Origin: Pohlia nutans
Lineage: Eukaryota; Streptophyta; Bryopsida; Bryales; Mniaceae
Reading direction: 5' to 3'
DNA length: 64,000 nucleotides
Assembly (NCBI GenBank): GCA_022496805.1
Contig: CM040100.1
Coordinates: forward strand, 20,737,009-20,801,008
This document shows, in pieces, positions 22,309 through 60,421 of this stretch (positions are counted from its first letter, which is position 1; each line of letters opens with the position of its first letter). Position numbers and translations under genes: made by a program. The notes under the pieces were generated by a model, which had not been told where the DNA came from, ran no database searches, and saw only the letters and a list, made by a program, of their open reading frames with translations.

Positions 22309-23850
22309 TCACGGTGCAGAGGTGAAACCGGTCCCTCGGCCTTCGATGTTGCAGTTCCCCTCGGTCACAACATAGGGAAGCCTTGCACCTTCCGGCAGTA
22401 GTGCATTAGTCTTCGGCAGTAGTCCACTATGTTCTGTAGCTTCAGTGGTAAGCAGTATTCCATGAGTCTCCGGTACAGCAGCTGCTGATGTAGCTCGATC
22501 AGTGGGGGTTTGGTAGGCAGGCATGCCATGCTCGGCAGAGCTATGGTGTGCAGTAGTGTGTGGGTCACCAGCAGAGATGTGTTTGCCAATGTTGATCGGC
22601 TGACCACCGAAATTGTTGTGAGCACCAGAGTAGGGAAATGAAGTAGTTCTAGTGTGCTGTGGGGCAGTGGCTGCCACGCTTGAATGTCTTGAAAGGTTTG
22701 ACATGTTCAAGCCACTACTTAAAACATGTGAGAGTTGTGATAAACAACTGACCATCTCACCTTGCTTCATGATCGCCAATCTGGCATTTTCATTCGCCAC
22801 CGCTGCATTTTCATACATACGTCTATCTTTTTCTCTCTGGTACGCCATCTGTTCCGAGAAAAGCTTGAGTTGAACGTCGATTTTTGAACGTTCAAGATCC
22901 CGACTAGCATCTGCTATCTCCTGCATCTGTGCAGCCATTATTGCCCCCGTAGCCTTCGTGGCTTCTGCTATGACGGTGTGCCCTGATAAACTTTTCCTTC
23001 TAACTGCTGTGTTACCAGGACGTTTGTGAACGGCATATTGAGAAGTATCTGAGGAGCTAATCACCTGGGGGTTGATGCCGGGGGGCAGGCCGTTCACTGG
23101 TCGCTGAGCAGGACTTCGTGACGCCTGAGGTTGAACTGCAGGTTGGGAGGCGGTGGAGACACTTCTTCGACATGGCGGCGGCGGGGACGATTCTTCAGTA
23201 GTCTCAAAGGCCTCGGGCTGCGGGATGTCCAACGGGTCGTCAATTTCCGGTTCACTCTGAACCTCCTCCAAGTCATGATGTCTGTCGCGTACTATTGGCC
23301 TGTAGTTAGCGTCATTTGGTGCAAGCAAGTCACGAATGTGAGGAGGCTGGATCTGGGGGCGGTTACCGTACCACTCATGAATCGCATCGTACACATCTTG
23401 AGGAAATAGTCGTGGTAGGCTTTCTGCTTTCCGTTCCGCTGCACTCAGGTCCCAATAATCAGGTGCGTTTCTCCCCGTGCGGCTCAAGTAGTCAAATATT
23501 TTTTTGTAGTCGGGAATCAATTGATTCCATTTAGTCTTGCATGACGGTCCGTCACGTAGACACGGTGACAGTCCTGCTCGCATGATGTGTTGTGAGATCC
23601 TGTGCCACTTGGTACTCTCTGGAGTCATGAGATCGCGTCCATCGATTGTATCAAGCTCCTCTAGATACATCTCACGTTTGGCAGAAATTAGAGCGAAAAT
23701 TTCGTCTGGCAACCAGTTAGGCCCGCGGTCCTTACGAGCCCTTTTCGACTGGCTGGACTCAGCAACAGCAGGTACAATCGGTGCCGGACGTGTCACTCCC
23801 GCAATGGGCGATACACGGGCGGGTGCTCTAGGTGGCCCAAACGTTGCCAT
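22309..23850 (-). CDS. Harbinger trihelix/MYB-like partner protein
   Basis: An intact 513-aa frame from the ATG at 23850. The frame extends 14 codons further up to a GTG. A basic patch SKRARKDR (residues 35-42) looks like a nuclear signal. It is followed by a trihelix/SANT-like domain (about 44-140): NWLPDEIFALISAKREMY, KWHRISQHIM, GPSCKTKWNQLIPDYKKI and a YWDLS segment. A proline/serine-rich linker precedes a predicted coiled coil (about 305-370, IAEATKATGAIMAAQMQEI... LKLFSEQMAYQREKDRRMYE). The C-terminus is low complexity. In Harbinger elements the second protein carries the transposase to the nucleus and to the element's ends. The trihelix form and its tail-to-tail position fit that role. 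It could be mistaken for a host trihelix factor if seen alone. Confidence 0.88.
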   Translation of the reverse strand: MATFGPPRAPARVSPIAGVTRPAPIVPAVAESSQSKRARKDRGPNWLPDEIFALISAKREMYLEELDTIDGRDLMTPESTKWHRISQHIMRAGLSPCLRDGPSCKTKWNQLIPDYKKIFDYLSRTGRNAPDYWDLSAAERKAESLPRLFPQDVYDAIHEWYGNRPQIQPPHIRDLLAPNDANYRPIVRDRHHDLEEVQSEPEIDDPLDIPQPEAFETTEESSPPPPCRRSVSTASQPAVQPQASRSPAQRPVNGLPPGINPQVISSSDTSQYAVHKRPGNTAVRRKSLSGHTVIAEATKATGAIMAAQMQEIADASRDLERSKIDVQLKLFSEQMAYQREKDRRMYENAAVANENARLAIMKQGEMVSCLSQLSHVLSSGLNMSNLSRHSSVAATAPQHTRTTSFPYSGAHNNFGGQPINIGKHISAGDPHTTAHHSSAEHGMPAYQTPTDRATSAAAVPETHGILLTTEATEHSGLLPKTNALLPEGARLPYVVTEGNCNIEGRGTGFTSAP

Positions 23851-25339
23851 AAGAACTGAGCCTGCTAATGCAATCGTGTAGGTTGTTAGCACCGTGTTTA
23901 CGTGACGATTTTTTTTTATTTAGCATTTTCTCATTGAAACATCGGAGTGTGTGTGATGTGCAGGTCTTTTGTCTATGCAGGAGAAAAAAAGAAACTTAAC
24001 TACCATTGAAATTTAATTAAAGAGGAATGAATGAAGAACGAACAAAACTGTAAACTTTGAGAAAGTACTTACCAGCATCAACTGGCATTGCCATGGGTCT
24101 CACGGGCGTGGTGAACTGATGAGGACTCCTGCGATTTTCCATCGTGAAATATGGTCTTCCTGCGGCAATGTGTACACATGTTACTTTCGAAGCCCAAAAA
24201 AAAAAAATTAAACCCAAACAGGAAGGTTTCTACTGACGAATTCTACTTTGATTCATACAGGTTCCTACAGCGTAAGGAAATGGGAGATCTGTACAATGTG
24301 CACACTCTGAAATGAGTGTTCTGCAATGACAACCCGGAATGTGTTAATGTAGAAGGCATTCAATGCCGATTCTATGCAGCATTGCACTCAGCATAAGTGA
24401 TCTGTCGTTGTATATATATGTTCTAAAAAATTACTGACCCATTTAATGTCCTGAACTACCGATTCCTACAGTCAATGCAATGCAGGGATCTTGGAGTCAC
24501 ACAGATCGTACTACCCTGACACTTGTGCGTGCAAAACAATGTTACAAGTCCCTGAACTACCGATTACGATGGCCCTGAAGTGTGCTAAATTCAATAGTGC
24601 AAAGGCTGAAATGAGCGAATTGAAATGGCATACTGCTGCGTTTGTGATCGGAATCGGACAGGAGAATTCAAGAGAAAACCGCAAACATTCAAATAAATTG
24701 AAGTAGAATCTAGCAAATTGCTTCCACAGGATCGCGAGGAGGGAGAGGGCAGCGTACCTGCGACAATCGACGGCGATTGAGGTACGTACTTCAGAAATAT
24801 TGATATTTTATAGCTCGCTGGAACGAAGTCAGAGGTCACAGTACAGTTGTAGGGTCGTGCCAAGTTGCCGACAAGAGTGCGCTAAAACCAAAGACCGATG
24901 TTACGTAATTCGCCCTCGCAGGCTCCACTAGATAAGAGCGCCCTCAAATGACTCACATCTACAGAATCACTAGATTTTAATTTGCTATTAATCTGCCACT
25001 GATTTCGAACTTTCCCCAAAAGCTACGGCTGTCTTTTCCCTAACACCGCTCTTACAGGAGTGCCATGTAAGCATCCACCTAGGCTCGGTGAATACCAACC
25101 AGCGTAAATGTGAACACCACATTACTTTTAGCACAGTTTTAGCTATAACAACGCGGCCTTAAGGCCAGGTGTGGACGTGCTTTTAGATGGTGAAAAATGT
25201 CAAGTGTCTTTATTGAACCGGGTTCTTTACAGTACAATGAATGATCATTCATAATCTAGTGGAGATGCTCTAAGTTCATATCATCACGTATCTTTATTGA
25301 ACTAGGTTCTGCACAGTACAATCAATACAGCACAAGGAA

Positions 25340-25929: not shown

Positions 25930-27651
25930 CTATTCCGACCGCTCCGTAGCCAACAAACGTTGCCCGGAGATTTTACTCACGCGCTGCCGCAGCTTCTCAC
26001 GATTCTCATGAATCCTACGCAACCCGTTTCCCACAATCACAAGAGAATATAAAGTGTGCGTGATGATGGGCGCCAAGATGTTCCCCGTGTGCATCCATTC
26101 AAATCCCAAGTACAAAGCGAGTAACCCCTCCATCATAGGCGAGTAGATCTTCTTCTGTTGACGCCGCGCGTACCACGCCGCAACTCGTTCCTGAAGGTAG
26201 AAGCACCAGAAACTGTTAGTGACCAATTCCTGCCACCTATGCAATCCCAATCAAATTACTACAACAGTTAATTGTAGCAGTTTGGTGATCAATTATGAAC
26301 ACCAAGTTAACGAAGAGATTGGACTAGAAATAACGAGTATTGGCATCCCTACTAACATGTCAATTGTGGATTAGAAGCACCAGAAACTGTTAGTGACCAA
26401 TTCCAGCCATCTGTATCTACTTCGGGAGTTTCCAATCAAATTACTACACCAATTAGTTGTAGTAGTTTGGTGATCAATTATGAAAACCAAGTTAGCAAAG
26501 TTATTGGACAAGTATTGGCATCCCTACTAACATCAATAGTGGTATATGCAGATTGAGTTTAAAATTCAGAACAAAATCATACATTGTAACAAGAATTAAA
26601 TAAAAATTGGACTCGGTTCTTAAAGTTTTATGTGAAAGATTTATGCCAAAGTTTTATGTGCTGCAACTTTATATCATTGAAAACCACCTCTCTATAAAAT
26701 GCTTAAACTGGAAATTACTGTGTTTTTTACCTTAATATCAAATCGATTGTTCCTTCCACGAGTGACGGGCGCCACCACGTATTTTGGATCTTTGGGGCTC
26801 GTCATCACGTAATACATCGAGCTCGTCAAGGCGGCCGTCAAAGCGGTCGCAAAGAACTGCGCAAACGGTACAAAGAGCGGAATAACGCCCGTCAAAGCAG
26901 CCAACCCCACGGTAGTCCCTGTACCAACCCCTTTATCGCTCATCTGAAGAGCGTGTGTTAACCCGCCCTGAATCGCAACACGGAAAAAAAGCTCCTCCGC
27001 AATAGCCCCCGCCGCGACAACAAACGAGAATTGCCACGGTGACATGCCGCTGAAGAAAAACAGAAGCTCCTCGTCTTCCACATCACGAATCGCGCGAGCT
27101 GGTCCCCAGGATTTCACGATTTCGTCCTCGAGAATGAAGAGTAAGGCGATCATGGGGGGAACTGCGTATCCGAATCCCGTTGTGATTACTTGTGGAGAAA
27201 GCTCGAAACCCCCCCAAAGATCCACCCCGGTAAAACTACAAATCACATGCCCGGCAAACGCAAGACCGCCATACATCGCGACGGAATAACACATCCGGAA
27301 CACCATGGAAATCTGCTCCCAGCTCGCGTCCGCGTTGGGATCCGTTTGTTGAAGATTTACATTCCAATTCGCGTCGAGTGCTGGCGAGGTTTCACTCAAA
27401 TCCTTCGGCGAAGACGACTCCCCAATCTCCCGTCCGCCCGCCATAGCCACGGCGTGTTTGCCATTTCTGAATTCGTGATGAGTTCGAACCTTAACCCCTC
27501 GTGATAAAAACAAACCCTGATGATTCCTATCTCGCCATGGCGATGATTCTAACAAATCAAATTGCGAGGAAAATCGGATTGACCTCTCCGCTTGCGGAAT
27601 TTGTCCACAGAAGCGATCCTGCAAACCGAACGCGCGGAGAGGCGACGGCAT
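25930..27651 (-). CDS. CPBP-family (CAAX-protease/bacteriocin-processing-like) membrane protein
   Basis: Two exons: 27651-26731 and 26190-25930, joined in phase 0 to 393 aa. The N-terminal ~100 residues are Ser/Arg-rich and poor in acids at first, as expected of a plastid transit peptide (inference). Several membrane segments follow (about 120-142, 155-175, 205-217, 245-282, 328-358). The family's active-site motifs are present: EELFFR at 219-224, FEWMH (FxxxH) at 337-341 and a further His at 352 in the last membrane helix. CPBP proteins are intramembrane glutamic or metal-type endopeptidases, or scaffolds related to Rce1. Plant members are mostly chloroplast proteins of uncertain substrate. 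The 540-bp intron contains a tandem duplication that repeats the sequence next to its acceptor. The upstream region 27652-28030 is the likely promoter. Confidence 0.87.
26200..26533 (-). repeat. ~165-bp tandem duplication in the CPBP intron
   Basis: 26200-26363 and 26373-26533 both start AGAAGCACCAGAAACTGTTA and end GGCATCCCTACTAACAT. The first copy abuts the exon 2 acceptor, so the duplication carries the polypyrimidine region. The last few bases of the real acceptor (CTTCAG) are not in the second copy. Confidence 0.8.
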
Positions 27652-28029
27652 CCTGATGGATCAAACAAGAAAAAAACAAACAGGGAGCAAGCAATTTAGC
27701 ACAACTGACTAGTCGTCATCACTGCAAATTCTTGCACATGAATCCTTGCTTCGAATTGTCAAGTGGGGGAAATGAATTGCGGTGCGTGACCGACCATGCA
27801 GGCAGGGCTAGCTAACCAGGTGGCTATGGCGAAGCGAGCTTTAAAGGGGCTATTATAGGGAGGGAGGGGCTACAATAGGGAGGGATGAAAGGATATGAGT
27901 TTCTGTGGCTGGAATAAAGCCGGGTCGCTCATTGGCTGTTGCTAAACCCTTGTTGCTGCTCACTTGTTGGGGAGATTTTCTGTGTGCTAGGCTTGGCTTT
28001 TTGAGTTCCTAGCCTCAGCCATATCTGAC

Positions 28030-32819: not shown

Positions 32820-33234
32820 GGTGGCTGGCGTTGTGGAACACAAAAGTCTGCTCCAATCAAGTACCAAATAGTTGACGGAGGTTTCTTGCAATGGAAGCAT
32901 TCATTTTCTAAATTGGCGGGCATTCCTCGCATCCATCTGACTTTGAAAGGGGCAAGCATACCGGTATGTATGGTGACAAAAATGTCTCCTTTGACAAAAT
33001 TGTCGATCAATGGTTAGTTCTCTTAGTTTAGCCACAAGTTCAAGCCTCAAGCTTACCATGTGTTTTAGAGCATCCACACCCATGCACGCTAAAGTTGACT
33101 TGCTAAAATTATTCATCTACATTTGAAAAGCCTTTGAACTTACACTCCTACACCCTTGAACTCCCCTGAAGCACCAAAACTGCGCATCAAATAGTCAATG
33201 GACCAATCACAAGTAGAATGTTGGATATAGTCAA

Positions 33235-34147
33235 TTAACCCCTAAAATTCTGAGCGACCATATTCTGGTCGTTCCACTTTTTGGGCAGCCTCTAGGGACC
33301 TCATACTTTTAAAATTTTCAATGATAATTTCAGTGTAGCTTCCAAAAACTACACTCTACATGTCGCACTTCGTTTCATGTCATTCCGATAAGTATTGCAA
33401 AAGTTATAAGCATTTGAAGTTTTTGAAGCGAGATCGGGCAACAAGAATTTTTTTATTTTTTACTCTTTTTCAAAATTTCTTTTTTGATTCATGATTGGTT
33501 GATCTTTATCTACAAATGAAGCTTTAAATCTACCCATTTTGAGCAATGGGATAAAAGTTATGAGGAGATATGTTTTTTGGGCAGTTTGGACCAAAAAAAC
33601 TTTGAAGCTCATTTCTAAACTCAATATTTTTTTAATGAAATAAAAGGCACTGGGTGAAGATTTCCAAGTACAACATTCTCACCGTTAAGATTGACATTTT
33701 ACAATTCCATGTCAAACTTATTAATGATTTTCTTTTTCCTTTCACTTTGTACCCACTTCTAGTAATTGTTTTATGAAAAAATTAATATGAGCTTTTTTCT
33801 TACAAGATTTTATATTTGAAGACTTAACTCAATTGCTAACATGGCCTTGCCATTCAATGAATTTCTAACCCATTCAAAAAGAAGATATTAATTTCTAAAG
33901 TTCAAATTTGTCACCGGATTGAACCCCAAAAAATCTTCTTTTGCAACTTTGATCCTTATAATCTAAGAATCTAATGGTCATTTTGCTCTCAAATTTTGTG
34001 CTCACATGAAAATTCAAGTTGGGTATTAGATCTTACGGTTAAATGATGAAAAAAATAAAAAAAACATGTGATTTCTTCTGCAACTTCCAAATGCTGCGTT
34101 TTTCATGGTTTTTTGTGAGAATACGGTCAAGGAATTTTAGGGGTTAA
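33235..34147. mobile_element. TTAA-flanked element 8 (intact reference copy)
   Basis: TTAA (33235-33238), CCCCTAAAATTCTGAG ... GGAATTTTAGGGG, TTAA (34144-34147). The body is 905 bp and non-coding. It is near-identical, inverted, to the two halves at 43.69-44.35 kb and 51.26-51.52 kb, and so gives the uninterrupted version of that locus. Confidence 0.88.
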
Positions 34148-35380
34148 ACTTAGATTTGAAGGGTCATTTCTCAACACGCTAGGATTGAGGGTCAAGAAGG
34201 ATTTTGGAAGGGCCCTTAGCATTTTTCATCTAGTTATTGCGTGTGTCAGACTCTAAGAGGGCATAGGTGCGGATGCTCTTAAATAAAAGTATGGAACATA
34301 CTTAAGGTTCTTTGGCAGTTGGTGGAATTCATCATTTTTGACAGTAGCATTGGAAGTGATCTCCCTGAGTTTAGAGGTTAAACTGCCCCTTTACACCAAA
34401 GAATCTACTTGATTGTTATGTTCAATTACTTCCTTCATTGTCTTAATGGTTTAATGGTATCACTTGGTGATCTCATTCTCATCCACTGAAGTATCTAAAA
34501 CCACTCTATTTACACCTACTTCCACGTATCACTTACTGCATTTAGTGTTCATTTGAAGTGAGGTGGAATTTGGAGATCACTATGATGGAGTGCGGAATTG
34601 AGTCATAGATGGTTTTAGGTATCATGTCCACTTTAGTTATTGTCTTAGGGAGTGTCACGGCTCTTTCAAGAAGTTGATTCTTTGAAGATTGGGAACGTGG
34701 GAAGAGAATTCAAGAGCCAATCGCGACCATTTTGCACGAACCAAGTGGTAATATCCTTTGAATGCGCGTGAAGAATGAAAACAGTAGTGAATTGGGAGAA
34801 TTTACCTGGGTTCAACATCGTGCCGCACCTCAACACAAACCCGCAACCAGTGACAAGGGTGAATTGTGACTAGGGTGAAAACTACTTTGCAGAGAATCAA
34901 AATCACATCCATTCTTCTCCTCAAGAGAAGAATGGAGCTTCTCAATCTTCACAAAATGGGTCAATTTTCATAGAATTCAAGGAGAAAGTGCCATGTACAT
35001 ATTCTCTGAATATTGAGAATTAGGGCATTTCTTTTTTCATTTTTTATGAAGTACCAAAATGGCAATATAAAATGTTATAGTCGGACGCTCCATATTTCAA
35101 CATGCATCCACATATTGGATAGAAAATATCACATTAGAAGACGTCACATATCCATAATTTTGTTTTCATCCACAATTTGACAATTTTATTCCAAGATATT
35201 TATTTTTTGAATTTGAAGTTTTATGACAAAAAAATTCCTGGTTTTTCGCCAGTTTCTAGCCAAACTCATTTTTTCTGGTGCAATCTGGCACTATTTCGCC
35301 CCAAAAGAAAATACCCTGCCACGTACCCATTCTCTGAAGATTGAGTATGGGAAGAAAGTGCCGCGACGTCCCCATTAACT
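34148..35380. other. A+T-rich intergenic, nothing recognised
   Basis: No convincing reading frame, RNA gene or terminal repeat was seen. Scattered G+C-richer patches (34640-34930) have no protein-like frame. Confidence 0.4.
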
Positions 35381-41981: not shown

Positions 41982-44900
41982 CAAAGAATAAAACTGAAAT
42001 AGTAATTTATTGAATAAACATATTAAAATTCGAGTACGCATTATTTTGTTTATAATTTGGTCCCACAAATTTAGATAAAAAATCAAATATTTGGAGGGAT
42101 TTGGAAGTATTTTGGTTCAATTAATTATTGAAGTTTTTATTTCATATTCATATATGTTATCTCAATAATAAGTCAACATAAATATTGCTAAAATATTATT
42201 TTTCATGTTAATTTATAATTGATATTTCTTTCAAAGACCATAAGAACAATTATAGATACTAACCATAGTTATTTCATGTATATGCATGGCATTGATTAGA
42301 AGCATAATTTGTTCTTTAATATGCTTCAATCAAGATTACGGAGTACAAAGTATAAGAATTTGAGTACATACTTGAAACATGTTTTTTGCAACTTTTGAGT
42401 ATGGTAAATATGTACTTCTAATAAAATAATATTTTTCTTAAGCTTTTCAAAAAACATTTCACATTCATTTCAAGTTACTTTTGTCGGTGTTTGTATTCCA
42501 ATCTTAAATATTTGTTGTCGAAGCACTTGTGTTCATATGTACAAATGCATCATATTTTTTAACATTGCATAGTTCTAACATTGTTTGTGCAACCACGAAT
42601 TTTAAAAGGCATTATTATATCAAGCTACTTTTGGTATTATAATGTTGTACAAAACTTAAACTCATACAAATTTAAAAAAATATATATATGGACAAAAAAT
42701 ATTTAAAAAATCCAAATCAATATATAGTTGTCTTTTGGTTGATTTGAGCAATCACAAAATAAATCATAATTTTATATTTTAAATTTTATATATTTTAACT
42801 GGTATTGAGCTTTATCATAATAGAATTGTGCATATTTATTACCACCAATTGGTTTAATTGGCACATTAATCACAAAGCTATGTGACAAAAAAAAGATTCA
42901 CGTTATATAGTGCATATGCATAATTTAGTGAAATCTTTACTATAATGCATTTGATGTTGTTGATAAATTTCTTTATATTATTCAAAAAATTATTCTTATC
43001 ATCTATAAGTTCTTTTTCAAATGAGATGAAAAAATTGTAAGATAACATTGTAATATTGTAAAAAAATTAATATTGTAATTTATAATTATTTTAATATTGT
43101 AAGATATAAGACATTGATATTTCTAAATATTTTGATTTTAAATTGCAATACTACCAAAGAATTCATGGTATTCAGAAGGTTTGGCAAAATTTTAATCATG
43201 ATGCAAACCTCCTATATATAGAGATGGTTTCCAAACCATTTATAAAATTTGTAATTTATACGTTCAACTTTTTGTAGCAATAATGCAAAATCTCACCTTC
43301 AAGAAAAAACGCAAACTTCTCGCAAATTTCAACTATTGTTTGAACCAAAAGGTTTGATTTTGAAGTGCAAATTGTTGTTTTGGTGTAGAAAGGGTTTCCA
43401 TTTTCATTTGATTTTTGAAATTTCGTGTGATATTAATGCCAATGTTCAATAGATTCTAAAAGGCAGGTATTGTCGGTTAAGTTGGTTATTTACAAGTATG
43501 GCAGTAGATAGTTGGGAGTTGAAAATGTGTCATGAAGGAGGAAGTTTCAAATATAAGTAGGATGATCGTTTTTACTATTTTTAGCAAACAAGTGTGGTAT
43601 GACTCTTTTAGCAATCATCTTTTTGTGCACATTTCTACTTTTTCATTGATTAATAGTATATTTGTATACTCCTTTGTTCAAATTGGGTTAACCCCTAAAG
43701 GACTAGGACCGTATTCTCACAAAAAACCATGAAAAACGCAGCATTTGGAAGTTGCAGAAGAAATCATATGTTTTTTTTAGTTTTTTCATCATTTAACCGT
43801 AAGATCTAATACCCAACTTGAATTTTCATGTGAGCACAAAATTTGAGAGCAAAATGACCATTAGATTCTTAGATTATAAGGATCAAAGTTGCAAAAGAAG
43901 ATTTTTTGGGGTTCAATCCGGTGACAAATTTGAACTTTAGAAATTAATATCTTTTTTTTGAATGGGTTAGAAATTCATTGAATGGCAAGGCCATGTTAAC
44001 AATTGAGTTAAGTCTTCAAATATAAAATCTTGTAAGAAAAAAGCTCATATTAATTTTTTCATAAAACAATTACTAGAAGTGGGTACAAAGTGAAAGGAAA
44101 AAGAAAATCATTAATAAGTTTGACATGGAATTGTAAAACGTCAATCTTAACGGTGAGAATGTTGTACTTGGAAATCTTCACCTAGTGCCTTTTATTTCAT
44201 TAAAAAATATTGAAAATTGAGTTTAGAAATGAGCTTCAAATTTTTTTTTGTCCAAACTGCCCAAAAAACATATCTCCTCATAACTTTTATCCCATTGCTC
44301 AAAATGGGTAGATTTAAAGCTTCATTTGTAGATAAAGATCAACCAATAACAAGGGTTTCGTTAAAAGTGCCTATTGAAATGTGCACTATTTTTTGGGATT
44401 ATTTTTTAATATTTTAATCACAAATTTTGGTATGTATAAGCAATAATATTGTACTTTGGCTAGAGTCTTTTCAGATACTATTGATTGAAAATAAATCCAA
44501 AGCAAGCTATGTAAAATATATGTGTGTCATATTTATTTTGTGCTTTAAGTTTATAATCAAGAATTTTTTATAATATTAGATCAATTAAACGGCTAAAAAA
44601 CATTATTTTGTGCATCTTCAATAATTGTTTGTAAGTTTGATAGAAATTGTAACACTTACACCCTAATTTTTAGTTAAAAGATTGAAAAATAAACCAATCC
44701 TAATTGGCAAGACACACCATGGAAGCAAAAACATTTAAAATGATAAATTCAAAAAAAAAGAATAATGTACTTGTGTCACTTTATATTTGAATACTTAAAA
44801 ACAATAAAGTCAAACAAAAAAATAAAGCATGTGTCTTATTTATGTATTTGAAGTTCTGAAATTTTAATAATTAGAAGAACAACTAAAAAATATATACTAA

Positions 44901-45509
44901 GTTTTGAGAACCATATCCATAGTGGTAATCTTAATAAATCCATACAATCAATTAAACCAATTTTGTATTTAAATTTACATATTACAATGTAAACTATAAT
45001 GAGATTGAATGTGTGATACTTTTTATGAAAATAAACTTTAAATCATAAAAAAATCTTATTGAGGCAATTCCAAGCAAACAAACTAAATTGAATTTGTTGA
45101 TTATGTGTTTATACAGTAAATTCTTTGAAGGAATTTGAAAAAAGATACACCATGATAGTAAAACACAATAATATATAGTATACTCAAGTAATAAGTTACA
45201 TGGTAACAAATATTCTATACTCTATATCATATCACTATAATACTATAATATATTATTAATATCAACTAAACAAATCTAGCCATCCAAAGAGTCTAAACCC
45301 AAGCCTAGAGAAAACATATTCTTGCGCACATCTGGATGTATCAATGCATTTTCTTCTTTGGGGGGGGGGGGCCTTTGAAGGCCCGCCCCCTTTACTCCGC
45401 ATGAGAAGTCCTCCAAAAAGACCTCCTAAAATCACACAATAACATCAACAAACAAACAAATAGTCAATATGCATGAAAAACTACGAATAATAAGAATAAG
45501 TGATTTTTA

Positions 45510-46930
45510 CTAAAAGAGTGCGACATGTGCCACACCTCCAAAAACTTCAATTGCAAAAACACTCAAATTTATAAAGATTCATTCTTTGTACAATCAATCA
45601 AAGAAATGCCACACCTTTCAATATAACATCAACAATAGGAGTAAAGCATATGCATCACCCCCTCAATTCTACATAAGCAAAGAAACTTAAGTACAACTAA
45701 GTTCAAAATTATACAGAAAGAGTGTGGCATGTGCCTCACCCCCTAAATTCAAGAAAAGCAACAATGCAAAAAATACATACAATCACATCGAGAATAAGAA
45801 TTAAACACATTGAGTGAGACATGTGCCTCATCCCCGAAATCCCATATGAAAAATAACAACTAAAAACGTTATAAATAAAAATTAAACACAAAGGGTGTCA
45901 CAACCTCACAAAAATATGAGAGTATAAACTCAATGACATCAAAAACAAAAAAACAAACACAACGGAGGAGGCATGTGCCTCACCCTCACAAAAATACAAG
46001 AGCATAAACTCAAGAACATCAAAAAAAATTAAACACAAGGGGGTGAGCCATATGCCTCACCTTCAAAAAAAATATGAGAACTTAAACTCAATGACATCAA
46101 GAACAAAAACCAAACACAAAGGGGTGAGGCATGTGCCTCACCTTCACAAAATTATGAGAGCATAAATATAAGGGCATAAACTAAATGACATAAAAAAAAA
46201 ATCAAACACAAAGGGATGAGGCATGTGCCTCACCCTTACAAAAAGATGAGAGCATAACCTCAAGGACATAAAAAAAGAAACTAAACATAAAGGGTGGGGC
46301 ATGTGCCTCACCCTCAGAAAAATATGTGAACCTAAACTCAATGACATCAAAAACAAAAATCAAACACAAGAGGGTGAGGCATGTGCCTCACCCTCACAAA
46401 AATATGAGAGCATAAACTCCATGACATCAAAAACAAAAATCAAACACAAGGGGGTGAGCTATGTGCCTCATCCTCAGAAAAATATGAGAGCATAAACTCA
46501 AGGACATAAAATAAAAATAAAAAACTTAAACACAAAGGGGTGAGGCATGTGCCTCACTCTTAGAAAAATATGAGATTATAATCTCACTGACATCAAAAAC
46601 ATGAATCAAACACAAAGGGTGAGGCTTGTGCCTCACCTCCAAAATGGCACATGAGCAAAATCAATCAAGTACAATCAAAATTGAAATCAAACATAGCAGG
46701 GGTGAGGCATGTGCCTCACCTTCTAAATTCTACATGAGTGAAATGCATAAATACAATCAAAACGAGAACCAAACACATGGAGTGAGATATGTGGCATACA
46801 TTTGGTATGTTTGCATAATGAACATAAAATGAGATTGTGATTACGATGCAAGGAGTGAGGTATGTCGTGAGTTTAGAAATTTAAAATCAGATTGCAATTC
46901 AAGTAGTGAGGCATGTGCCTCATTCCAAAA
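45510..46930 (+). repeat. Left array of palindrome-containing repeats (~78-bp units)
   Basis: About 18 units, each with a core close to GGTGAGGCATGTGCCTCACC, a 20-bp imperfect palindrome. The spacers resemble AAAAATATGAGAGCATAAAC, then TCAATGACATCAAAAAC and CAAACACAA. Core arms are more conserved than spacers in several units. Short reading frames through it are repeat artefacts. A run of 11 G and GGGCCTTTGAAGGCCC (45361-45390) lies just before the array. Confidence 0.9.
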
Positions 46931-46939
46931 AATGTTCAC

Positions 46940-48060
46940 AGAAACTCCACACATCCTCCTCAAATTGAAAATAAAAAACATTGAATTTTAAATTTTAGAA
47001 TTTGGTAATAAGTGAGATGAGAACTTAATTACAAAACTCATAATCTAGATTTTGAGATTGTGTCGTCAAGTGATATATGTCCAGAACCCTAAATATTTAC
47101 AACTTTAAAGGAATGTGAGTTATAATACAAATAATTTAACATATTGATGATTCAAAAATTCTCAAAGATGCAAATTTCAGAGTTTTATAAATACAAGCAA
47201 ATGTTATTGGAACTGAGATTTGAGATTGTGATGTGCACATAGCAACAATTTGGTGGTTGAATACTAAATGAAGCTGGAAACCCTAAAAAGAATTTAGATC
47301 TAGATCTAGATGAAATTTGAAAGTCGGAAACTTACCCTTATTTTAGTACTGAAATGATAAACACAATAGATCTGAAGGAAACTAAGAATCAGAAGCGCTC
47401 CAAAGTAGATCTTAGTACGAGAAGTTAGGGCCCAAGTGAGATAAATCAACAAGATTCTTGGTAGTGTGTTGAATCTTGTTTATAGATGAGGTGTTAACCG
47501 CGTAGTAGAGTTGAAGTGATGCAACCTGTAGCAAGAAGGTAGAAGGTTTAGTACCACACAAACAAGGTTATCTAGATATGCAGAACAAGTAGATCAGAAC
47601 GTGGGTTGTACCAAGGCGGAGGCATTAATGTTGCAAATCACCACTATACAAGATTCGGCACTTTGCAAGCGAAGCAAGACGGTGGAGAAGAGAATCGCCG
47701 CACAAGCAAGGAGTGGCAGAGAGGAAAGGCGGCGGAGAAGAGAGAAAGGTAGGAAGAAGCGAAAACACGACCTAAACCCTATTTAGGTTTTTCAAATTTT
47801 AATTTATTTATCTTTTGTGAGATCTCCAAGTCTGTATAGCTCTAACTTACACAGATTTAAGAATTTTGACTTGAATTTTTTTGGGAGCGCCGGTGGCACT
47901 ATATTAATAGCACCCTTAAAATGGTTAGGCATGTGCAATATTAATTCCTCTACTTAGTTTCATTTACTTCAACTTATTACTCTGCAATTTAATTTTGCTT
48001 GTGACTAAACAAGGTGACGTAAATCTTACAACCTTGATAAATTTATTTGGTTTTATGAGG
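46940..48060. other. Middle segment of element Y, possible gene remnant
   Basis: Between the arrays the sequence becomes purine-rich and then G+C-richer (47550-47770). A 61-codon plus-strand frame (47601-47786) ends in a strongly basic stretch. Read on the minus strand, the same part looks like a CT-rich plant 5' leader. It may be the promoter or first exon of a lost element gene. No domain is recognised. Confidence 0.3.
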
Positions 48061-48061
48061 T

Positions 48062-50222
48062 TTAAAAGGGTGAGGCACATGCAACACCCTTTATGAGAAT
48101 AATCACCTTTGTTGAAGTCAATTTCACTTAAGTTTATGAGGGTTGAGATACATGCTACACCATCTATACATGTAATTGGTTAAGTTAGGATTTTAGGGGT
48201 TACGCATGTGCCACTTCCTTTATGAATTTAATTGCTAGGCTTGCGAGTAAGACACATGCTACACCCCATATGACACTAATTAACTTTGTTAGAATTTTAA
48301 GAGGTGAGGCACATGCCACACTCTACATAACAGTATTAACTTTGTTCAAATATGAAGGCATAAGGTAGGTGGGACACCCCGTAAGACAATAATTTGCCTT
48401 GATAGAAATTCAAGAGGTGAGACATGTGCCACACCCCATATAATTTTTTTTTGCCTAGTTAGAATCTTAAGAGGTGAGGCACATGCCACACCCCTTAAGA
48501 CAATATTTTGCCTAGTTTGAATCTTAAGAGGTCAGGCACATGCCACACCCCTTATGACAATATTTTGCCTTATTTGAATCTTAAGAGGTGAGACATGTGC
48601 CACAATCCTTATAACAATATTTTACCTAGTTTAGATCTTAAAGGGTGAGGCACATGCCACACCCCTTATAACAATATTTTGCCTAGTTTAAATCTTAAGG
48701 GGTGAGGCACATGCCACACCCCTTATAGCCCTATTTTGCCTAGTTTAAATCTTAAGGGGTGAGGCACATGCCACACCCCTCATGACTATATTTTGCCTAG
48801 TTTGAATCTTAAGGGGTGAGGCATATGCCATACCCCTTATACCGTAGTTTACTAGCAGGTTCGGCAGAAAACAATTCTAAATATATATGCCTAAAATTTC
48901 GGAATATCATTGGCATTTTTTGCCGAATATAATATAAATTATAATTCAAAATTGCCGAAAAGTGAAAAATTGTTACCTTCCACTAGATTTTACTTCGTTT
49001 GGATGCATGCGTGAATCGTAGTGGAGAGAAGGTGTTGCTCTTGTAATCAAGTTCATTTACATCCGTCCACAAAGAATATGGGTTAAGAAGTAATAAGACT
49101 CTAGCTTTTGAAATGTGTCCTACACAGATTTTTGGAGTCCAATTGAACATAGAAGATGAAGTTTTATAGAAATTTGTCCAACTAACAAAAGTTGAGAAAT
49201 CAAGCCTTCTTCTACCTCCAACAAGTTTTGTGTCAAAATAAGTCTTCATGCAAAAGATATAGACAAAATAGAGCAGCCGTGTAAAAGTCAAAATCAAAAT
49301 GCGTTCCTAACAGTTTTTCGGAGCTCGTTTGTGCATAGAAGATCAACTTTTTTGGAATTTTGTTGGTCTAAGAAAAGTTTAGAAATCAAGTAATCTTTCA
49401 CCTCCAACAAATTTTATGTCATTTGAAGACTCTATGCAAAAGTTATGCGTATTATAAAAATGAAGACTAACTAGGTGCTTCACCTCAAAGTTTACATATC
49501 CCATATGCCTTGTTGGATACAACTCCACTCCACTTGCATAAAGCACAGAGCATTCTCCACTCTTATCTCTCATCTTACTTGTCAATCAATGCAAGAGAGT
49601 TGTACATGACAATAAGCCGAATTTTAAAAAATTAAAAGAGAAAATTGCCGAAAGTATTAATATACTATTTTTAGGTGCCGAACCTACTTTTTGAACTTTA
49701 ATTAAATATTAGGTAGCAAGTTGCCAAACCTGCTAGTAAACTACGATAACAATATTTTGCCTAATTTAAATCTTAAGGGGTGAGGCACATGCCACACCCC
49801 TCATGACGATATTTTGCCTAGTTTGAATCTTAAGGGGTGAGGCATATGCCATACCCCTTATAACAATATTTTGCCTAGTTTAAATCTTAAGGGGTGAGGC
49901 ACATGCCACACCCCTTATAGCCCTATTTTGCTTAGTTTAAATCTTAAGGGATGAGGCACATGTCACACCTCTCATGGCGATATTTTGCCTAGTTTGAATC
50001 TTAAGGGGTGAGGCACATGCCACACCCCTTATAGCCCTATTTTGCCTAGTTTAAATCTTAAGGGGTGAGGCATATGCCACACCCCTTATAACAATATTTT
50101 ACCTAGTTTAAATCTTAAGGGGTGAGGCACATGCCACACCCCTTATAACAATATTTTGCCTAGTTTGAATCTTAAGGGGTGAGGCACATGCCACACCCCT
50201 CATGACGATAGTTAATTTTGTT
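48062..50222 (+). repeat. Right array of palindrome-containing repeats (~58-bp units)
   Basis: About 21 units with a core near AAGGGGTGAGGCACATGCCA followed by CACCCCTT, a 28-bp near-palindrome. The spacers are close to TATAACAATATTTTGCC and TAGTTTAAATCTT. The first few units (48060-48400) are diverged; the later ones are nearly identical. The array is split at 48842-49745 by element X copy 2, and the spacer resumes directly after it. Confidence 0.92.
48842..49745. mobile_element. TIR element X, copy 2, inserted in the right array
   Basis: Left CCGTAGTTTACTAGCAGGTT, right CCTGCTAGTAAACTACG, inverted copies. The interrupted repeat unit gives the empty site: CCTTATAACAATATT occurs in neighbouring units, whereas here ATA is present on both sides (48839-48841 and 49746-49748). 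The body is 904 bp and non-coding. It matches, inverted, the outer parts of the copy at 10279-12514, and lacks the TTAA insertions seen there. Confidence 0.88.
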
Positions 50223-50403
50223 CGCATTTAAGAAATTAAGGCATAAAGTTACATCATCTATTTTGATTATTGTTGAATTACATAAAACTTTTTTTTTAAC
50301 ATGTTCTTACAATCATCTTGTTTTTTTGTATGACCAGGCATTGTTTTATCTTAAAAAAAATCATATGGATTGAAACTTAGGCATTCCTTTTTTTCTGGCA
50401 AAA

Positions 50404-50619
50404 GTGCTCTCTCTAAGTCAACAAGCTTGTGAGAACGGTATTACAAACGTTCTCTGGTATCAACCAAGAATGCCAAGAGGATTACAAGATGTAGAAGGGA
50501 CGTTTCACAATTGGTACACGGATTGTATACACCGTGCTTGGGAACCCTCTCGAGAACCACATGGTTGTGTTCCAATTGATTCTATTTTTACTGCTTGGGA
50601 GAATACCGTTGGGACCTAA
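50404..50619 (+). other. 71-codon open frame inside element Y, unrecognised
   Basis: The frame starts at a GTG and gives a protein-like mix with many Trp and Cys residues (NVLWYQPRMPRG, HNWYTDCIHRAW). It is less A+T-biased than its surroundings. It could be an exon or fragment of a transposase or captured gene. No family was recognised. Confidence 0.3.
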
Positions 50620-51526
50620 AATTTGATTATTGTTTTTGGTGTTAGAACCGAGAGAGAGTTAAAAATTCCAAATGGTGAAAAGTTTCATTTTGAATATCAC
50701 CTTAACCTTTTAGAATAGATTTGCCATATTAGCTCTATATTGTACTTTATACTTGACAATTTATACAATACGATATTGATATATAATTTTGTCAAGGTTT
50801 CATGTGAATGAGATTTTTTATGACTGAAAATTTCTTGCTATTAAGTGTGTATTTAAATATCCAAACTTTGTCATATGCAATGATGTTTTCTCAATATTAG
50901 ACGTGCATGTACATACCTCAATCTTTTATCTTGTAAGTAAAATATATATTTTTTCAAATATATACTTAAATTTATAACCATATTTGAATTAATAATATAA
51001 GAAAAAATTTAAAATTATAAGAAATTTCTAGCAAGGTTTCTCATATTATTGTTAACTCAACTTTTTTTATAAAAATCACAAAATTGTAATTTGATCAATA
51101 ACCAAGCATAATGAACCTAAAATGTACCCATGTCTATATTCTTTATTTTTCTTACTAGGATAATTATAAAATGATCATATTTTCAATGAAATTTATAAAT
51201 TTTCAAAAAAATGTTCATGTGCACTTTTACATATTGAAGTGCACTTTTAACGAAACCCTTGTTCAATCATGAATCAAAAAAGAAATTTTGAAAAAGAGTA
51301 AAAAATAAAAGAATTCTTGCTGCCCGATCTCGCTTCAAAAACTTCAAATGCTTATAACTTTTGCAATACTTATGGGAATGACATGAAACAAAGTGCGACA
51401 TGTAGAGTGTAGTTTTTGGAAGCTACACTGAAATTTTCATTGAAATTTTAAAAAATATGAGGTCCCTGGAGGCTGCCCAAAAAGTGGAACGACCAGAATA
51501 TGGTCGCTCAAAAATTTAGGGGTTGA

Positions 51527-53600
51527 TGTGAGTGATTGGCAATTGTCTAAGTGTTTTTTTTGTTGTGTGAATGTTGAAGTGTGAAGTTTGAATATAGCCA
51601 ATGATTGTGGGCTATAATATGGAGATAGTTTTATTGGAATGATTGCGTGATTGTTGGTTTCTGCACAAGTGTAGTTCAGTTTGAGTGTTTGAAAATTAGT
51701 GTAAGTTGTTCGACTGACACTTTGTATATGCATTGGATGTTGGCTATGAACTATGGAAGCAATTTGATTGTAATAAAAAATATATTTATAACTAATTGTA
51801 TGAGTGTGTCTGTTGTCAATGTATGTTGAACTTGTTTGTAGCCAGAGTAATTGAAAAGCTATATTTTTGAATGAATGGTGTTTGTATGACATGTATTGAA
51901 ATTGAATTATACAAGCTAAGGCACTTAGAGTGGGGTCATAGCCATGGACTGTAAAAAGAGTTGTTTCATGTGGATAATCAATGAGAGCTGTAGTGTTTGT
52001 GATTGAAGTAATTAAGGCTATAGTCTAGAAGTATGGAAGTTGATATGTGATTATGTTGGTGTTTGCCACTATGATTAAAAGTTGAGAGTGGAAACAATTA
52101 TTGTGTTGTGAGTGGAGACAATAGTACACTCCAGTTGAGTGAGAATCAATATTGTTGATTCAAATTGATCATAGCCATAGTCTGTGAGATTATTGCTTGA
52201 ATGGTGTGAAGTCTAATTATAGACATTGACTTTTAGAGTAAATATGTTAAAGCTATAAATTGTGTATGGGAATTGCTAAAGACTTAAACATATCATTGTG
52301 TGAATGCCTTGAGCATATTATAGCACGAAAGTACAATGTGTTTTGATTGTCATTCGAGATGAGCAAATGGCATATAGAATGATAATAGCCAGTGGATATA
52401 TCAATGTAATAGAATGACTATAGTAAAATGTGAATACCAAACACAAGTTGTATAAACCAGAGGCTATTGCCTTTGATGTAATTTAATCAACTATGATATA
52501 GAAAATTATGCCGAGGATTACACTCGCTGAGTGGACAGTTTAATAGAAATGGCTGCATGATGTTCATGGCCATAAATGCAACAATGCCATAGTCGAGATT
52601 AACTAGTGTAATTGTAAAAGTATTGTCTGGGTGGTTGGATCAATAAAACATATACTTGCTTTACAAAGACAATGAACATAAAGTATATATTTTAGAATGA
52701 TAATTGATTATAGACAAATCATATAAGATAATTATGATGGAGTAGATGAAAACAATGCATGTAATTGCATGACTTGAGAATACATGAAATTGCTAATGCA
52801 TGAAAGTGAACAATAGAAACTACGGTGTGCGGATTGCACGATTATTGCCAGACTATTGCCTAAAAGATCACCATACATTAATTGATTATTGCCAATGAGT
52901 AATGTGCATTGAGAGAACCCTACTCCACAGTGTTTTATAATTTATTTATAGAAGACTGCATTTGCATGGAATTGCATTCATAAAGTCTATTAATTGACAA
53001 ACATTTTTATGGACCTCACTCACGGGATTGTGCACAGGCTTTTACAACTAACATCTTCTTTTAACCTATTTAACATATTATTTCCTAAATAAAACATCAT
53101 TTACCTATATGTGACCTTAATTATCTAAAGCTCTAGCTAGCTCGAGTCTTTTCCAAAAAGAATTCAATCTTTTGGTGTATATCTATGGATGTTTATTTCT
53201 ACTTTTTTGTACTACATAATGAGAGTCTAATTTGTAAAATAATGAATACTTTTGTATTTGTAATATAATAATAAAGATAAGATCTTCAAAAATAGAATAT
53301 GAGAACATTTTGACATATTCCAACTATATAAATTCTATCCCAACTTCAATAAATAAACCTCCTTTTTTTTTTTTAGTAAATTTTGATAGTTGTCCAAAAT
53401 GTAATTCTAAATTTTTAAATTTTCTCATGCAATGGAGTGAAATAAGATTTCATAAAGTTACCTTTATTTTTTATTTTATTTTTAAAATCAAATTCAAATT
53501 TCAAATTTCAATTAAATAAATAAACAAAATTGAATATTTTTTTTAACTCCAAAAACCTTGGCTACAAAATATGGTCGTCTTTGCACTTAGTGATTAAAAC
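51527..53600. other. A+T-rich intergenic with weak repetition
   Basis: No gene seen. The part 51600-52900 has recurring ATAGCCA..TGGA and TATAGTC-like phrases, suggesting a very degenerate short repeat. There are no conserved borders. Confidence 0.35.
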
Positions 53601-58861: not shown

Positions 58862-60421
58862 ATGGCGACGCAGCATGATTTCTTCATGTTTCAGGATGAC
58901 TATTACAAGAGGTTGGGGGAAGCATCAGACATGTCCGTGGAGAGCACGGGAAGCATACCGATGAGTATGAGTGTCGGTGGGAACAACTCAGTGTCCATGT
59001 TGTCACAAGCAGACAGCAGTGTTGGATCTAATGGTGGAGGCTCATTACACACAAGACTAATGCATGATGATCTGCGCACGCGACATGCGACTCGGAATGC
59101 CTCAGTGTCGCACAGTGTGGTGATGCCAGGCATTGTCTCACATACTGTCGGTGAAGACATTCTTGCCAGTGCTCTTATGGACCCAAGGTAAGTCGAAGAA
59201 CTTCTGACTCTTATTGTGATAAGGGTTTAGGTTTTGTAATGGACTGTCTTAGGGTTTAATGGTGGAGGTAATTGCAGGTTTCCGACCGAAGGTTTCGAAG
59301 GGTACGACGACTGGACGATTGATTTGCGGCGACTGCATATGGGCCCTCCGTTTGCGCAGGGCGCATTCGGCCGACTGTACAAAGGCACATACAACGGGGA
59401 AGACGTGGCTGTGAAGATCTTGGAGAGACCGGAGAACAACGTCGAGAAGATGCTGATGATGGAGTCTGCGTTTGCCAAGGAGGTCACCATGCTTGCAGCT
59501 GTGAAGCATCAGAACGTGGTACGCTTCATTGGTGCGTGCCGGAAACCCATGGTGTGGTGCATCGTCACGGAGTACGCGCGAGGAGGCTCAGTGCGTTCCT
59601 TTCTCAGCAAACGCCAGTCTCGTGCTGTGCCACTCAAGCTCGCAGTGAAGCAAGCTCTGGACGTTGCTCGCGGCATGGAGTACCTGCATAGCTTGGAAAT
59701 CATCCACAGAGACTTGAAGTCTGACAATCTCCTCATTGCCACAGACAAGTCTATCAAGATCGCCGATTTCGGTGCTGCTAGGATAGAAGTGCAAGTTGAA
59801 GGCATGACACCGGAGACCGGAACGTATCGATGGATGGCTCCGTGAGTATCTAACTGTTGTTAGGGTTTGCACTCCTCGAAATCGAAATCAAGTTTTGATC
59901 TCTTCTTCTGTCCTCGTAGTTGTTTTTACATGCCCTGATACCATGATTACGGTTCTGTTTGTTACCAATTGATTTACAGGTTGAATTGACAGAGTCTGGG
60001 TCTGGTTTGGAACAAATTCGTTGTGTGATTTGACTGAGTTTCGAGTGTACGAACTAAGCGGGGCTTTTGTGTGTACAGGGAAATGATCCAGCACAGACCC
60101 TACAACCACAAGGTGGATGTTTACAGCTTTGGTGTGGTGTTATGGGAGCTTGTAACAGGCTTGCTACCGTTCCAAAATATGACGGCAGTGCAAGCAGCTT
60201 TTGCAGTGGTGAACCGCGGCGTCCGGCCTCCAATTCCTGATACATGTCCTGCGCAAGTGGCAGACATCATGAGTCGGTGTTGGGATGCGAATCCAGACGT
60301 CCGTCCCAGCTTTGCACAGGTGGTGAAGATGTTGGAGCAAGCGCAGGACGAGCTGTTGACCAAAGTTGGACGTGCGCGATTCCGGTGTCTTTGCTTGAAT
60401 CGGCCTCTAACAAGTGACTGA
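58862..60421 (+). CDS. Raf-like MAPKKK-type Ser/Thr(/Tyr) protein kinase, STY13-like
   Basis: Three exons: 58862-59187, 59278-59841 and 60079-60421, GT-AG borders, phases joining to 410 aa. The N-terminal ~115 residues are Ser/Met-rich and match the conserved lead-in of plant group C Raf-like kinases ([31 protein letters not shown]). The kinase domain (about 130-390) is complete: glycine loop FAQGAFG, Lys155 in VAVK, Glu177 in helix C, HRDLKSDN at 252-259, DFG at 272-274 and APE at 296-298. The tail [15 protein letters not shown] also matches the subfamily. These are cytosolic signalling kinases; specific inputs are unknown here. One oddity is DFGAAR where most relatives I know have DFGVAR. 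The ATG at 58862 is chosen because the frame before it opens only at a TTG. Confidence 0.93.

What the first reader, a model, noticed from the sequence alone, without database searches (positions are those of the whole stretch)
44348..51263. A 6.9 kb element with perfect 23-bp TIRs that houses two arrays built on the same palindrome
The ends are exact inverted repeats with a CAAT target duplication, and an uninterrupted copy of the target exists at 33.2-34.1 kb, so the borders are secure. Inside are two tandem arrays with unrelated spacers and different unit lengths (~78 and ~58 bp), yet the same palindromic core, GTGAGGCA-NN-TGCC(T/A)CAC. About 40 copies of one palindrome in one mobile element suggests selected protein-binding sites, hairpin-RNA production, or an amplification mechanism acting on hairpins. 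I know of no described plant element with this design.
Basis: partly seen in the sequence, partly recalled or inferred. Interest (0 to 1): 0.88.

Follow-up and report, generated by a model that had tools for sequence, protein, structure and literature searches.

The report
Transposon with paired palindrome arrays
This is one of many gene-deleted copies of a two-gene jumping element that carries two clusters of the same 20-letter palindrome, one just ahead of each of its two genes in the gene-bearing copies examined, probably as docking sites for one of the element's own proteins.

Summary
The element spans 44348-51263, with perfect 23-bp TIRs, a CAAT duplication and an empty paralogous site. 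Its two arrays have unrelated spacers and one shared palindrome.

The family is large. In the 698-Mb source genome the TIR matches 917 times (control 4). All 17 long copies fetched have 4-bp duplications. The palindrome matches 2,600 times (control 0); all 16 complete clusters listed (all on C1) lie in this family, so this is not a free satellite there.

Two gene-bearing copies explain the design. They carry gene A (minus strand, no Pfam hit) and gene B (plus strand, Pfam DUF7869; 1,027-aa open frame in one). Array 1 lies just upstream of gene A, array 2 just upstream of gene B. The window copy lost both gene bodies and kept the arrays. All 20 short derivatives (299-351 bp) fetched keep one or two palindromes.

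A relative (54% in the gene B stretch compared) has the same layout; both its arrays carry a symmetrically altered palindrome, GGTTAGGCATATGCCTAACC.

Most likely the palindromes bind an element-encoded dimeric protein (autoregulation, perhaps transposition): inferred, not shown. The 4-bp duplications resemble Sola; membership is unproven. Medicago MtPH-A6-4 elements have analogous arrays.

The parts
44348..44370 (+). left TIR, AACAAGGGTTTCGTTAAAAGTGC
   Evidence: 917 genome-wide matches with <=3 mismatches vs 4 control
51241..51263 (-). right TIR, exact inverted repeat
44344..44347 (.). target site duplication CAAT, left
51264..51267 (.). target site duplication CAAT, right
33231..34160 (-). 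paralogous empty target site (another copy of the ~930-bp element that was hit)
44371..45356 (.). left arm; with the TIR, the first 1009 bp of the element are 96.6% identical to the left end of a gene-bearing copy
45357..45364 (.). junction where about 3.06 kb (most of gene A) present in the gene-bearing C1 copy is missing
   Evidence: L052 1047-4102 has no counterpart here
45365..45402 (-). remnant of the gene A start (MRSKGGGPSKAP...)
   Evidence: same N-terminal residues as the minus-strand ORF of L052; near-identical in L054
45517..46924 (+). array 1: 15 sites scoring >=15 of 20 to the palindrome consensus, ~80-bp spacing; upstream of gene A in the two gene-bearing copies
46925..48068 (.). 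centre between the arrays
   Evidence: >=84% covered in 15 of 16 other long copies; no blastn hit over 250 bp in gene-bearing copy L054
48069..48841 (-). array 2, first part, mostly 57-bp spacing
48842..49745 (.). nested 904-bp element with TIR CGTAGTTTACTAGCAGGTT, inserted in array 2; also present in 10 of 16 other long copies
   Evidence: gaps of 840-965 bp between array-2 sites in those copies
49746..50197 (-). array 2, second part
50198..50374 (+). leader between array 2 and gene B; the junction with the gene tail lies at about 50368-50378
50375..50718 (+). remnant of the 3' end of gene B (DUF7869 protein tail); in-frame stop at 50617, final stop at 50716
   Evidence: P0001 94% over 104 aa (50404-50715); the gene-bearing copy L050 reads from DUF7869 towards this tail
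50719..51240 (.). right arm; the last 889 bp of the element are 96.9% identical to the right end of a gene-bearing copy

Best explanation
Shown: the 6.9-kb element is a non-autonomous deletion derivative of a large DNA-transposon family (4-bp TSD, 23-bp TIR). The gene-bearing copies examined have the layout TIR - gene A (read leftwards) - array 1 - centre - array 2 - gene B (read rightwards, DUF7869) - TIR. Each palindrome array lies just 5' of one of two divergently oriented genes, and the window copy lacks both gene bodies but keeps arrays, centre, leaders and ends.

Inferred: the palindrome is the binding site of an element-encoded dimeric protein (gene A product or a DNA-binding part of the gene B protein). 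It probably makes the arrays operators for autoregulation of both genes. Because the ~300-bp derivatives still carry one or two sites between their ends, it may also help assemble or recruit the transposition complex. Copy number then grows by ordinary tandem duplication of site plus local spacer, separately in each array. The motif changed symmetrically in both arrays of a diverged subfamily, as expected if site and protein evolve together.
For: Family and TSD: 462+455 TIR matches vs 2+2 control; 16 of 16 single-locus long copies with identical 4-bp flanks; the 17th, L022/L023, shows TATT on both sides.

Gene-bearing copies: 132 scored matches to P0035; C1 copy, 11,678 bp, TSD CCAC/CCAC, ends 96.6% and 96.9% identical to the window element; its gene B match holds one TGA; C15 copy, partly fetched: gene B open frame 1,027 aa, DUF7869 E 1.2e-57; array 2 ends 187 bp before its first ATG; array 1 starts about 87 bp from the gene A ATG.

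Same motif, unrelated spacers. Motif kept where the spacer is lost: 11 edge units are 0.75 alike in the motif, 0.32-0.46 in the nearest 20-30 bp and 0.25-0.31 farther out (0.28 expected). An unbiased 14-mer scan of the edges picks the motif (13 sites; 30 shuffles: max 9, mean 5.1). Motif vs spacer identity 0.88 vs 0.70 (array 1) and 0.90 vs 0.83 (array 2).

Derivatives: 20 of 20 copies of 299-351 bp fetched keep 1 or 2 motifs (one, L036, has its palindrome altered by a small insertion, score 16 of 20). L029 = right 120 bp + one array-2 motif + left 135 bp.

Diverged relative: L056/L058/L059 (54% identity in the P0035 match), TIR 21/25 identical, TSD TCAA/TCAA, gene A homologue, 15 + 19 sites of GGTTAGGCATATGCCTAACC in two arrays. 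A third group (61%) has 11 sites of GGGTGGGAACATGCCCACCC upstream of gene B.

Exclusivity: 16 of 16 complete motif clusters in the capped list lie in family members.
Against: No protein-DNA binding was or could be tested. Among 12 recent copies, motif columns of array 1 are not clearly less variable than spacer columns once base content is matched (pi 0.054 vs 0.067 at C/G, 0.017 vs 0.019 at A/T) and are slightly more variable over all sites (0.039 vs 0.033), so no current purifying selection is visible. The 45%-identity lineage examined (L057, one copy, 5.5 kb) has no such array, so arrays are not general in DUF7869 elements. In the 61% copy (L055) only the array next to gene B was found; no second array appears in the 3.8 kb farther left that was fetched. 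The 299-351-bp derivatives may descend from only one or two deletion events, so motif retention there could be chance. The inverted orientation of the two arrays alone has a 1-in-2 chance.
Confidence: 0.6

Rival explanations
1. Host-factor sites: the palindrome, which contains CATGTG/CACATG, is bound by a host transcription factor and the arrays are enhancers or boosters for the two element genes.
For: Position just upstream of both genes. The CATGTG/CACATG core resembles plant bHLH/NAC sites (recalled, not tested).
Against: The palindrome differs symmetrically between two subfamilies of one genome, which a shared host factor would not predict unless the core alone matters (GGCATRTGCC stays). 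Gene-less derivatives of ~300 bp keep it although they have no gene to express.
Confidence: 0.15
2. Neutral minisatellites: two tandem arrays grew by slippage, unequal exchange or gap repair inside the element, seeded by a hairpin-prone palindrome, with no function.
For: Multi-unit duplications in array 2. Copy number varies among copies. No lowered diversity in the motif among recent copies. Transition-rich decay, 41 ts: 10 tv in 35 units. No array in L057.
Against: Two independent spacers carry the same motif and edge units keep little but the motif. The same paired layout with a symmetrically changed palindrome in a relative whose gene B match is 54% identical is hard to get neutrally. All 16 complete clusters in the capped list are in this family.
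Confidence: 0.14
3. RNA hairpins: arrays lie in transcribed leaders and act as hairpin RNA (translation, stability or small-RNA source).
For: Stable hairpins and inter-unit duplexes in silico (five stretches, z -2.7 to -6.9). Relative to each gene's direction the motif mostly has the same sense in both leaders. A symmetrical change between subfamilies also preserves pairing.
Against: Among 33 units only 1 of 297 pair cells looks like a two-sided change and 62 of 297 lack a Watson-Crick pair (about 14 of these would be G-U in RNA); array 2 has a fixed mismatch. Single stems are only about 10-12 bp. The ~300-bp derivatives have no leader or gene. Transcription of the arrays was not tested.
Confidence: 0.11

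Closest known systems
MtPH-A6-4 PIF/Harbinger elements of Medicago truncatula (PMC2213677, passages read)
   Same: [quoted passage not shown] repeats found with at least residual element ends at the other 27 genomic sites; deletion derivatives; empty sites.
   Different: 3-bp TSD and PIF/Harbinger transposase; one repeat rather than two arrays with unrelated spacers sharing one palindrome; the passages read do not mention palindromes, array placement upstream of two divergent genes, or lineage-specific motifs.
Sola superfamily (PMC10741241, passages read; Bao et al. 2009 not held)
   Same: 4-bp TSD, TIR length within 11-1124 bp, sizes in the stated range, and a transposase-like protein with conserved D-containing blocks seen by eye (compatible with a DDD enzyme).
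   Different: No Sola reference sequence was available, so homology of DUF7869 to Sola transposase is untested; no array design is described for Sola in the passages read.
En/Spm (CACTA) elements with TNPA sites (recalled)
   Same: Clusters of a short site for an element-encoded protein in both orientations, serving transposition and regulation.
   Different: CACTA termini and 3-bp TSD; sites lie subterminally; different proteins.
Galileo / Foldback elements of Drosophila (PMC3573991, passages read)
   Same: Tandem repeats in or near TIRs, proposed to hold secondary transposase sites as a convergent trait.
   Different: Repeats are within long TIRs; here the TIR is 23 bp and the arrays lie internally, more than 1 kb from the ends of the window element.

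Membership tests
Own family (23-bp TIR, DUF7869 gene B) | TIR AACAAGGGTTTCGTTAAAAGTGC and 4-bp TSD | tested here: met
Own family (23-bp TIR, DUF7869 gene B) | both ends homologous to a gene-bearing copy | tested here: met
   (96.6% over 1010 and 96.9% over 890 aligned bp, C1 copy)
Sola | 4-bp TSD | tested here: met
   17 of 17 long copies (the 17th read from L022/L023 flanks); 11 of 13 short copies exact, 2 with one mismatch; TCAA/TCAA in the relative after a one-base shift of the automatic boundary
Sola | TIR of 11-1124 bp | tested here: met
   23 bp; range from PMC10741241
Sola | DDD transposase homologous to Sola transposases | tested here: inconclusive
   gene B carries DUF7869 with DNCGRENKN and GHTHEDIDQ blocks; no Sola reference to compare; Bao 2009 not held
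PIF/Harbinger | 3-bp TSD and DDE_Tnp_4 transposase | tested here: not met
   TSD 4 bp; only DUF7869 in gene B
CACTA (En/Spm) | CACTA termini, 3-bp TSD (recalled) | tested here: not met
   termini AACAAGG, TSD 4 bp
Ginger | TG...CA termini, gypsy-like integrase | tested here: not met
   termini AAC...GTT; no integrase family in gene B at E <= 0.1; features from PMC10741241
MULE | 7-12 bp TSD | tested here: not met
   TSD 4 bp; range from PMC10741241
Foldback | long TIRs built of subrepeats | tested here: not met
   perfect TIR 23 bp, only weak similarity beyond it
Transposase-site array (works like) | an element protein binds the repeated site | not testable with these tools
   needs a binding assay

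The most novel reading that the evidence does not exclude
A two-gene transposon lineage (DUF7869 transposase plus a gene A protein without known domain) carries paired operator arrays: dozens of copies of one ~20-bp palindrome just upstream of each of two divergent genes. In each subfamily the palindrome and its cognate element protein co-diverge in step across both arrays, and a single site is retained in the minimal ~300-bp derivatives because it is needed for mobilisation.
Probability: 0.4. Interest if true: 0.78.

Novelty: new variant of a known kind. Interest (0 to 1): 0.63.

Why it matters
DNA transposons with internal repeat arrays are known, but what the arrays do is usually inferred. 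Here gene-bearing copies, gene-deleted copies, minimal derivatives and a diverged relative sit in one genome, and the same palindrome, or a symmetrically changed version, marks two subfamilies on both sides of their two genes. That gives a direct test (which element protein binds which palindrome, and whether the site is needed for movement). It also points to DUF7869 as the transposase of elements with 4-bp target duplications, a kind (Sola) that one review calls not common in flowering plants (PMC10741241).

Tried and rejected
Pfam scan of nine stop-free stretches of the window element (chosen by me, not every frame): nothing. The structure model of the gene B tail was useless (mean pLDDT 50), so no fold search was run. 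IMG/VR and GTDB contig scans: TIR 0 in viral contigs; palindrome 0 in viral contigs and 1 in genome contigs, a match without an array in a bacterial contig (L001). Protein-to-contig scans: none confirmed. Paper searches for the exact motif and TIR strings: 0 papers; DUF7869: 0 papers. In one search (Sola with subterminal/tandem repeats) 19 papers held at least 4 of 5 terms and 15 were listed; no title or abstract start announced such an element, and I opened passages of only three of them (PMC10741241, PMC2213677, PMC3573991). KDZ elements were considered and dropped: the TSDs given are 7-8 bp (PMC12730594, passages). Passages of PMC9297572, PMC9033089 and PMC10294476 were also seen and added nothing decisive. 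Rfam: no match at gathering score in the window. PDB sequence search with gene B: none. Purifying selection on the motif among recent copies: not seen. My first automatic TSD check on the C7 relative failed because the inverted repeat ran one base too far; it was resolved by reading the junctions.


Full report
OBSERVATION. The 23-bp ends, the CAAT duplication and the borders are exact. A paralogous copy of the target at 33231-34160 (minus strand; 96.4% and 95.1% identical on the two sides) reads ...GATCAACCAATCATGAATC... with one CAAT, where the window has CAAT-element-CAAT. A perfect 23-bp inverted pair is expected about 1.5e-4 times in such a window. The target is itself a ~930-bp repeat with ends TTAACCCCTAAA...TTTAGGGGTT.

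ARRAYS. In one common orientation (array 2 reverse-complemented) both arrays give GGTG(A/T)GGCATGTGCCTCACC. With N at the variable base, 36 sites score >=15 of 20 in the element (15 in array 1, 21 in array 2), 40 score >=13, and nothing above 14 occurs in the other 57,044 positions. Spacing: array 1 mostly 77-92 bp, array 2 mostly 57 bp. The two consensus spacers align no better than shuffles (565 and 823 of 1000 shuffles as good, for the two orientations). Regular units are more alike in the motif than in the spacer (array 1: 0.883 vs 0.701, 9 units; array 2: 0.903 vs 0.832, 13 units). Eleven irregular edge units are 0.75 alike in the motif, 0.32-0.46 in the nearest 20-30 bp and 0.25-0.31 farther out, where 0.28 is expected from composition. 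These edges were chosen by motif match, so an unbiased check was made: the commonest 14-mer family of the edge DNA is GGGTGAGGCATGTG with 13 sites, against a maximum of 9 and mean of 5.1 in 30 first-order Markov shuffles. Within the palindrome of 33 of the 36 sites, 235 of 297 pair cells are Watson-Crick and 1 of 297 shows a two-sided change that keeps the pair; one pair is mismatched in all 20 array-2 rows. The relative orientation of the two arrays is one event and has little weight.

NESTED ELEMENT. Array 2 is split by a 904-bp element (48842-49745) with its own inverted ends; a second copy, itself interrupted, lies at 10281-12519. It is present in 10 of 16 other long copies, again inside array 2 (gaps of 840-965 bp between sites), so the array element probably amplified after that insertion.

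A GENE REMNANT. The right arm encodes the tail of a protein. Translated matches run from 50341 to 50715, but DNA alignment to the gene-bearing copies puts the start of the tail at about 50368-50378; one in-frame stop lies at 50617 and the final stop at 50716. Three protein searches gave 38 relatives (P0001-P0038). One of them, P0035, joins this kind of protein to Pfam DUF7869 (E 1.6e-21).

THE SOURCE GENOME. The genome search was mostly busy and answered three times. The window lies in a 697,796,988-bp assembly (G000:C16). The TIR (<=3 mismatches) occurs 462+455 times against 2+2 for the control (only the first 100 places are listed, all exact). I fetched the 17 long and the 13 short pairs visible in that list, and 9 stretches beside single ends. 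Flanks: 16 of 16 single-locus long copies have identical 4-bp flanks of varied sequence; the 17th (L022/L023, 12.3 kb) shows TATT on both sides. Among the 13 short copies 11 have identical 4-bp flanks and 2 have one mismatch. Of 16 long copies compared, array 1 is covered to >=90% in 16 and array 2 to >=76% in 15; L014 lacks array 2. The gene tail is found in 13 of 17 copies.

SHORT DERIVATIVES. The 301-bp form is the right 120 bp, one array-2 motif and the left 135 bp; the 351-bp form has two motifs. The 13 short copies, and 7 more (299-351 bp) with a diverged partner end, each keep one or two motifs: 20 of 20; in L036 the palindrome is altered by a small insertion. The other two single-end stretches hold a 1.6-kb copy with 2 motifs and a 3.7-kb copy with 9 (L045, L041). 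The short forms may stem from only one or two deletion events.

MOTIF ELSEWHERE. GGTGWGGCATGTGCCTCACC with <=1 mismatch: 1118+1482 sites, control 0+0 (first 100 exact places listed, all on C1). These fall into 16 complete clusters and one cut by the list. Twelve of 16 have an exact TIR nearby. For the other 4, flanking DNA aligns to the element's right end (L061, L062, L063, L064); the left end of the L061 cluster was not in the 2.6 kb fetched on its left (L060). So 16 of 16 are in this family; the other ~2,500 sites were not examined one by one.

GENE-BEARING COPIES. P0035 gives 132 scored matches out of 1,505 first-look candidates; three lie beside TIRs listed (C1:48735413, C5:12510985, C5:7219744). 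The C1 copy 48725640-48737317 is 11,678 bp, TSD CCAC/CCAC, right TIR with one mismatch; its P0035 match holds one TGA. Its left 996 bp are 96.6% identical to the window's left arm, and its right 890 bp are 96.9% identical to the window's right end. Between them lie minus-strand ORFs (gene A, no Pfam match above cut-off), array 1, the centre, array 2, and plus-strand gene B with DUF7869 split over two fetched stretches. A second copy (L054, C15; its left end was not fetched) has an uninterrupted gene B frame of 1,027 aa with DUF7869 at 483-672 (E 1.2e-57) and an exact right TIR. Its array 2 (23 sites) ends 187 bp before the first ATG, and its array 1 (15 sites) starts about 87 bp from the gene A ATG. 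Its centre gives no long hit to the window's centre. The C5:12510985 copy was fetched only at its right end, which matches the window's over 897 bp at 97.4% (L051). Compared with the C1 copy, the window element lacks about 3.06 kb (gene A body) and about 2.7 kb (gene B body) but keeps both arrays, the leaders and the centre. By eye, the window centre holds a TATA-like and CT-rich stretch facing gene A; this was not tested.

RELATIVES. Upstream DNA of three more diverged DUF7869 genes was examined, one copy each. (i) C7 (54% in the P0035 match): element 13199784-13213092 with ends AACACCCATTTCGTTAAAAGTGCAC (21 of 25 as ours), TSD TCAA/TCAA, gene A homologue on the minus strand (tblastn 32-50% identity for 4 of 5 gene A ORFs), and two arrays, 15 and 19 sites scoring >=14 of 20, both with consensus GGTTAGGCATATGCCTAACC; spacers no more alike than shuffles (837 and 97 of 1000 as good). 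(ii) C5 (61%): 11 sites of GGGTGGGAACATGCCCACCC, ~60-bp spacing, upstream of gene B; no second array in the 3.8 kb farther left, and nothing beyond was fetched. (iii) C8 (45%): no such array in 5.5 kb. Relative to ours, the C7 palindrome changed on both arms at the same pair and in the centre, in both arrays; the two motifs still overlap (6 L056 sites score >=17 to our motif, 7 window sites to theirs against 31 to our own).

INTERPRETATION. Shown: family, layout in the copies examined, derivation, association of the listed clusters with the family, and symmetrical divergence of the motif in one relative. Inferred: binding by an element protein, autoregulation, role in mobility. Against: no lowered diversity at motif columns among 12 recent copies; no array in one lineage and only one array seen in another; no binding data. 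RNA hairpins fold well in silico and cannot be excluded.

KNOWN WORK. PMC10741241 (passages) lists Sola as 4-bp-TSD, DDD, TIR 11-1124 bp and not common in flowering plants. PMC6786969 (passages) mentions SOLA elements in ferns. PMC2213677 (passages) describes Medicago PIF/Harbinger elements with opposed 60-bp arrays. PMC3573991 (passages) argues that tandem repeats in or near TIRs hold secondary transposase sites in several superfamilies. None of the titles and abstract starts listed by my 10 searches of the held library described this design, which is not proof of absence.

Noticed in passing
20557-23919: A PIF/Harbinger-type pair: DDE_Tnp_4 transposase ORF (462 aa, +) and a Myb/SANT-like ORF on the other strand (536 aa, -), unrelated to the element studied.
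   Followed up: partly
48842-49745 and 10281-12519: Two copies of a ~0.9-kb element with ends CGTAGTTTACTAGCAGGTT; the second is interrupted by about 1.3 kb.
   Followed up: partly
33231-34160 and 43677-51531: A ~930-bp repeat with ends TTAACCCCTAAA...TTTAGGGGTT, perhaps TTAA-flanked; the 6.9-kb element inserted into one copy.
   Followed up: partly
L015 about 5540-6070: A derivative in which the gene B start region is joined directly to its C-terminal domain, so a tail-only protein might once have been made; the matches now lie in two frames.
   Followed up: no
L054 1706-4729: The stretch between the arrays shows no long match to the window's centre and has its own 23-27-bp tandem repeats, so the centre seems exchangeable while the arrays stay.
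   Followed up: no
L057: A DUF7869 copy of a lineage 45% identical to P0035 with no tandem palindrome array in the 5.5 kb fetched upstream.
   Followed up: partly
26692-27660 and 59240-59845: Fragments of ordinary genes: a CAAX-protease-like ORF (below the Pfam cut-off) and a protein kinase exon.
   Followed up: no
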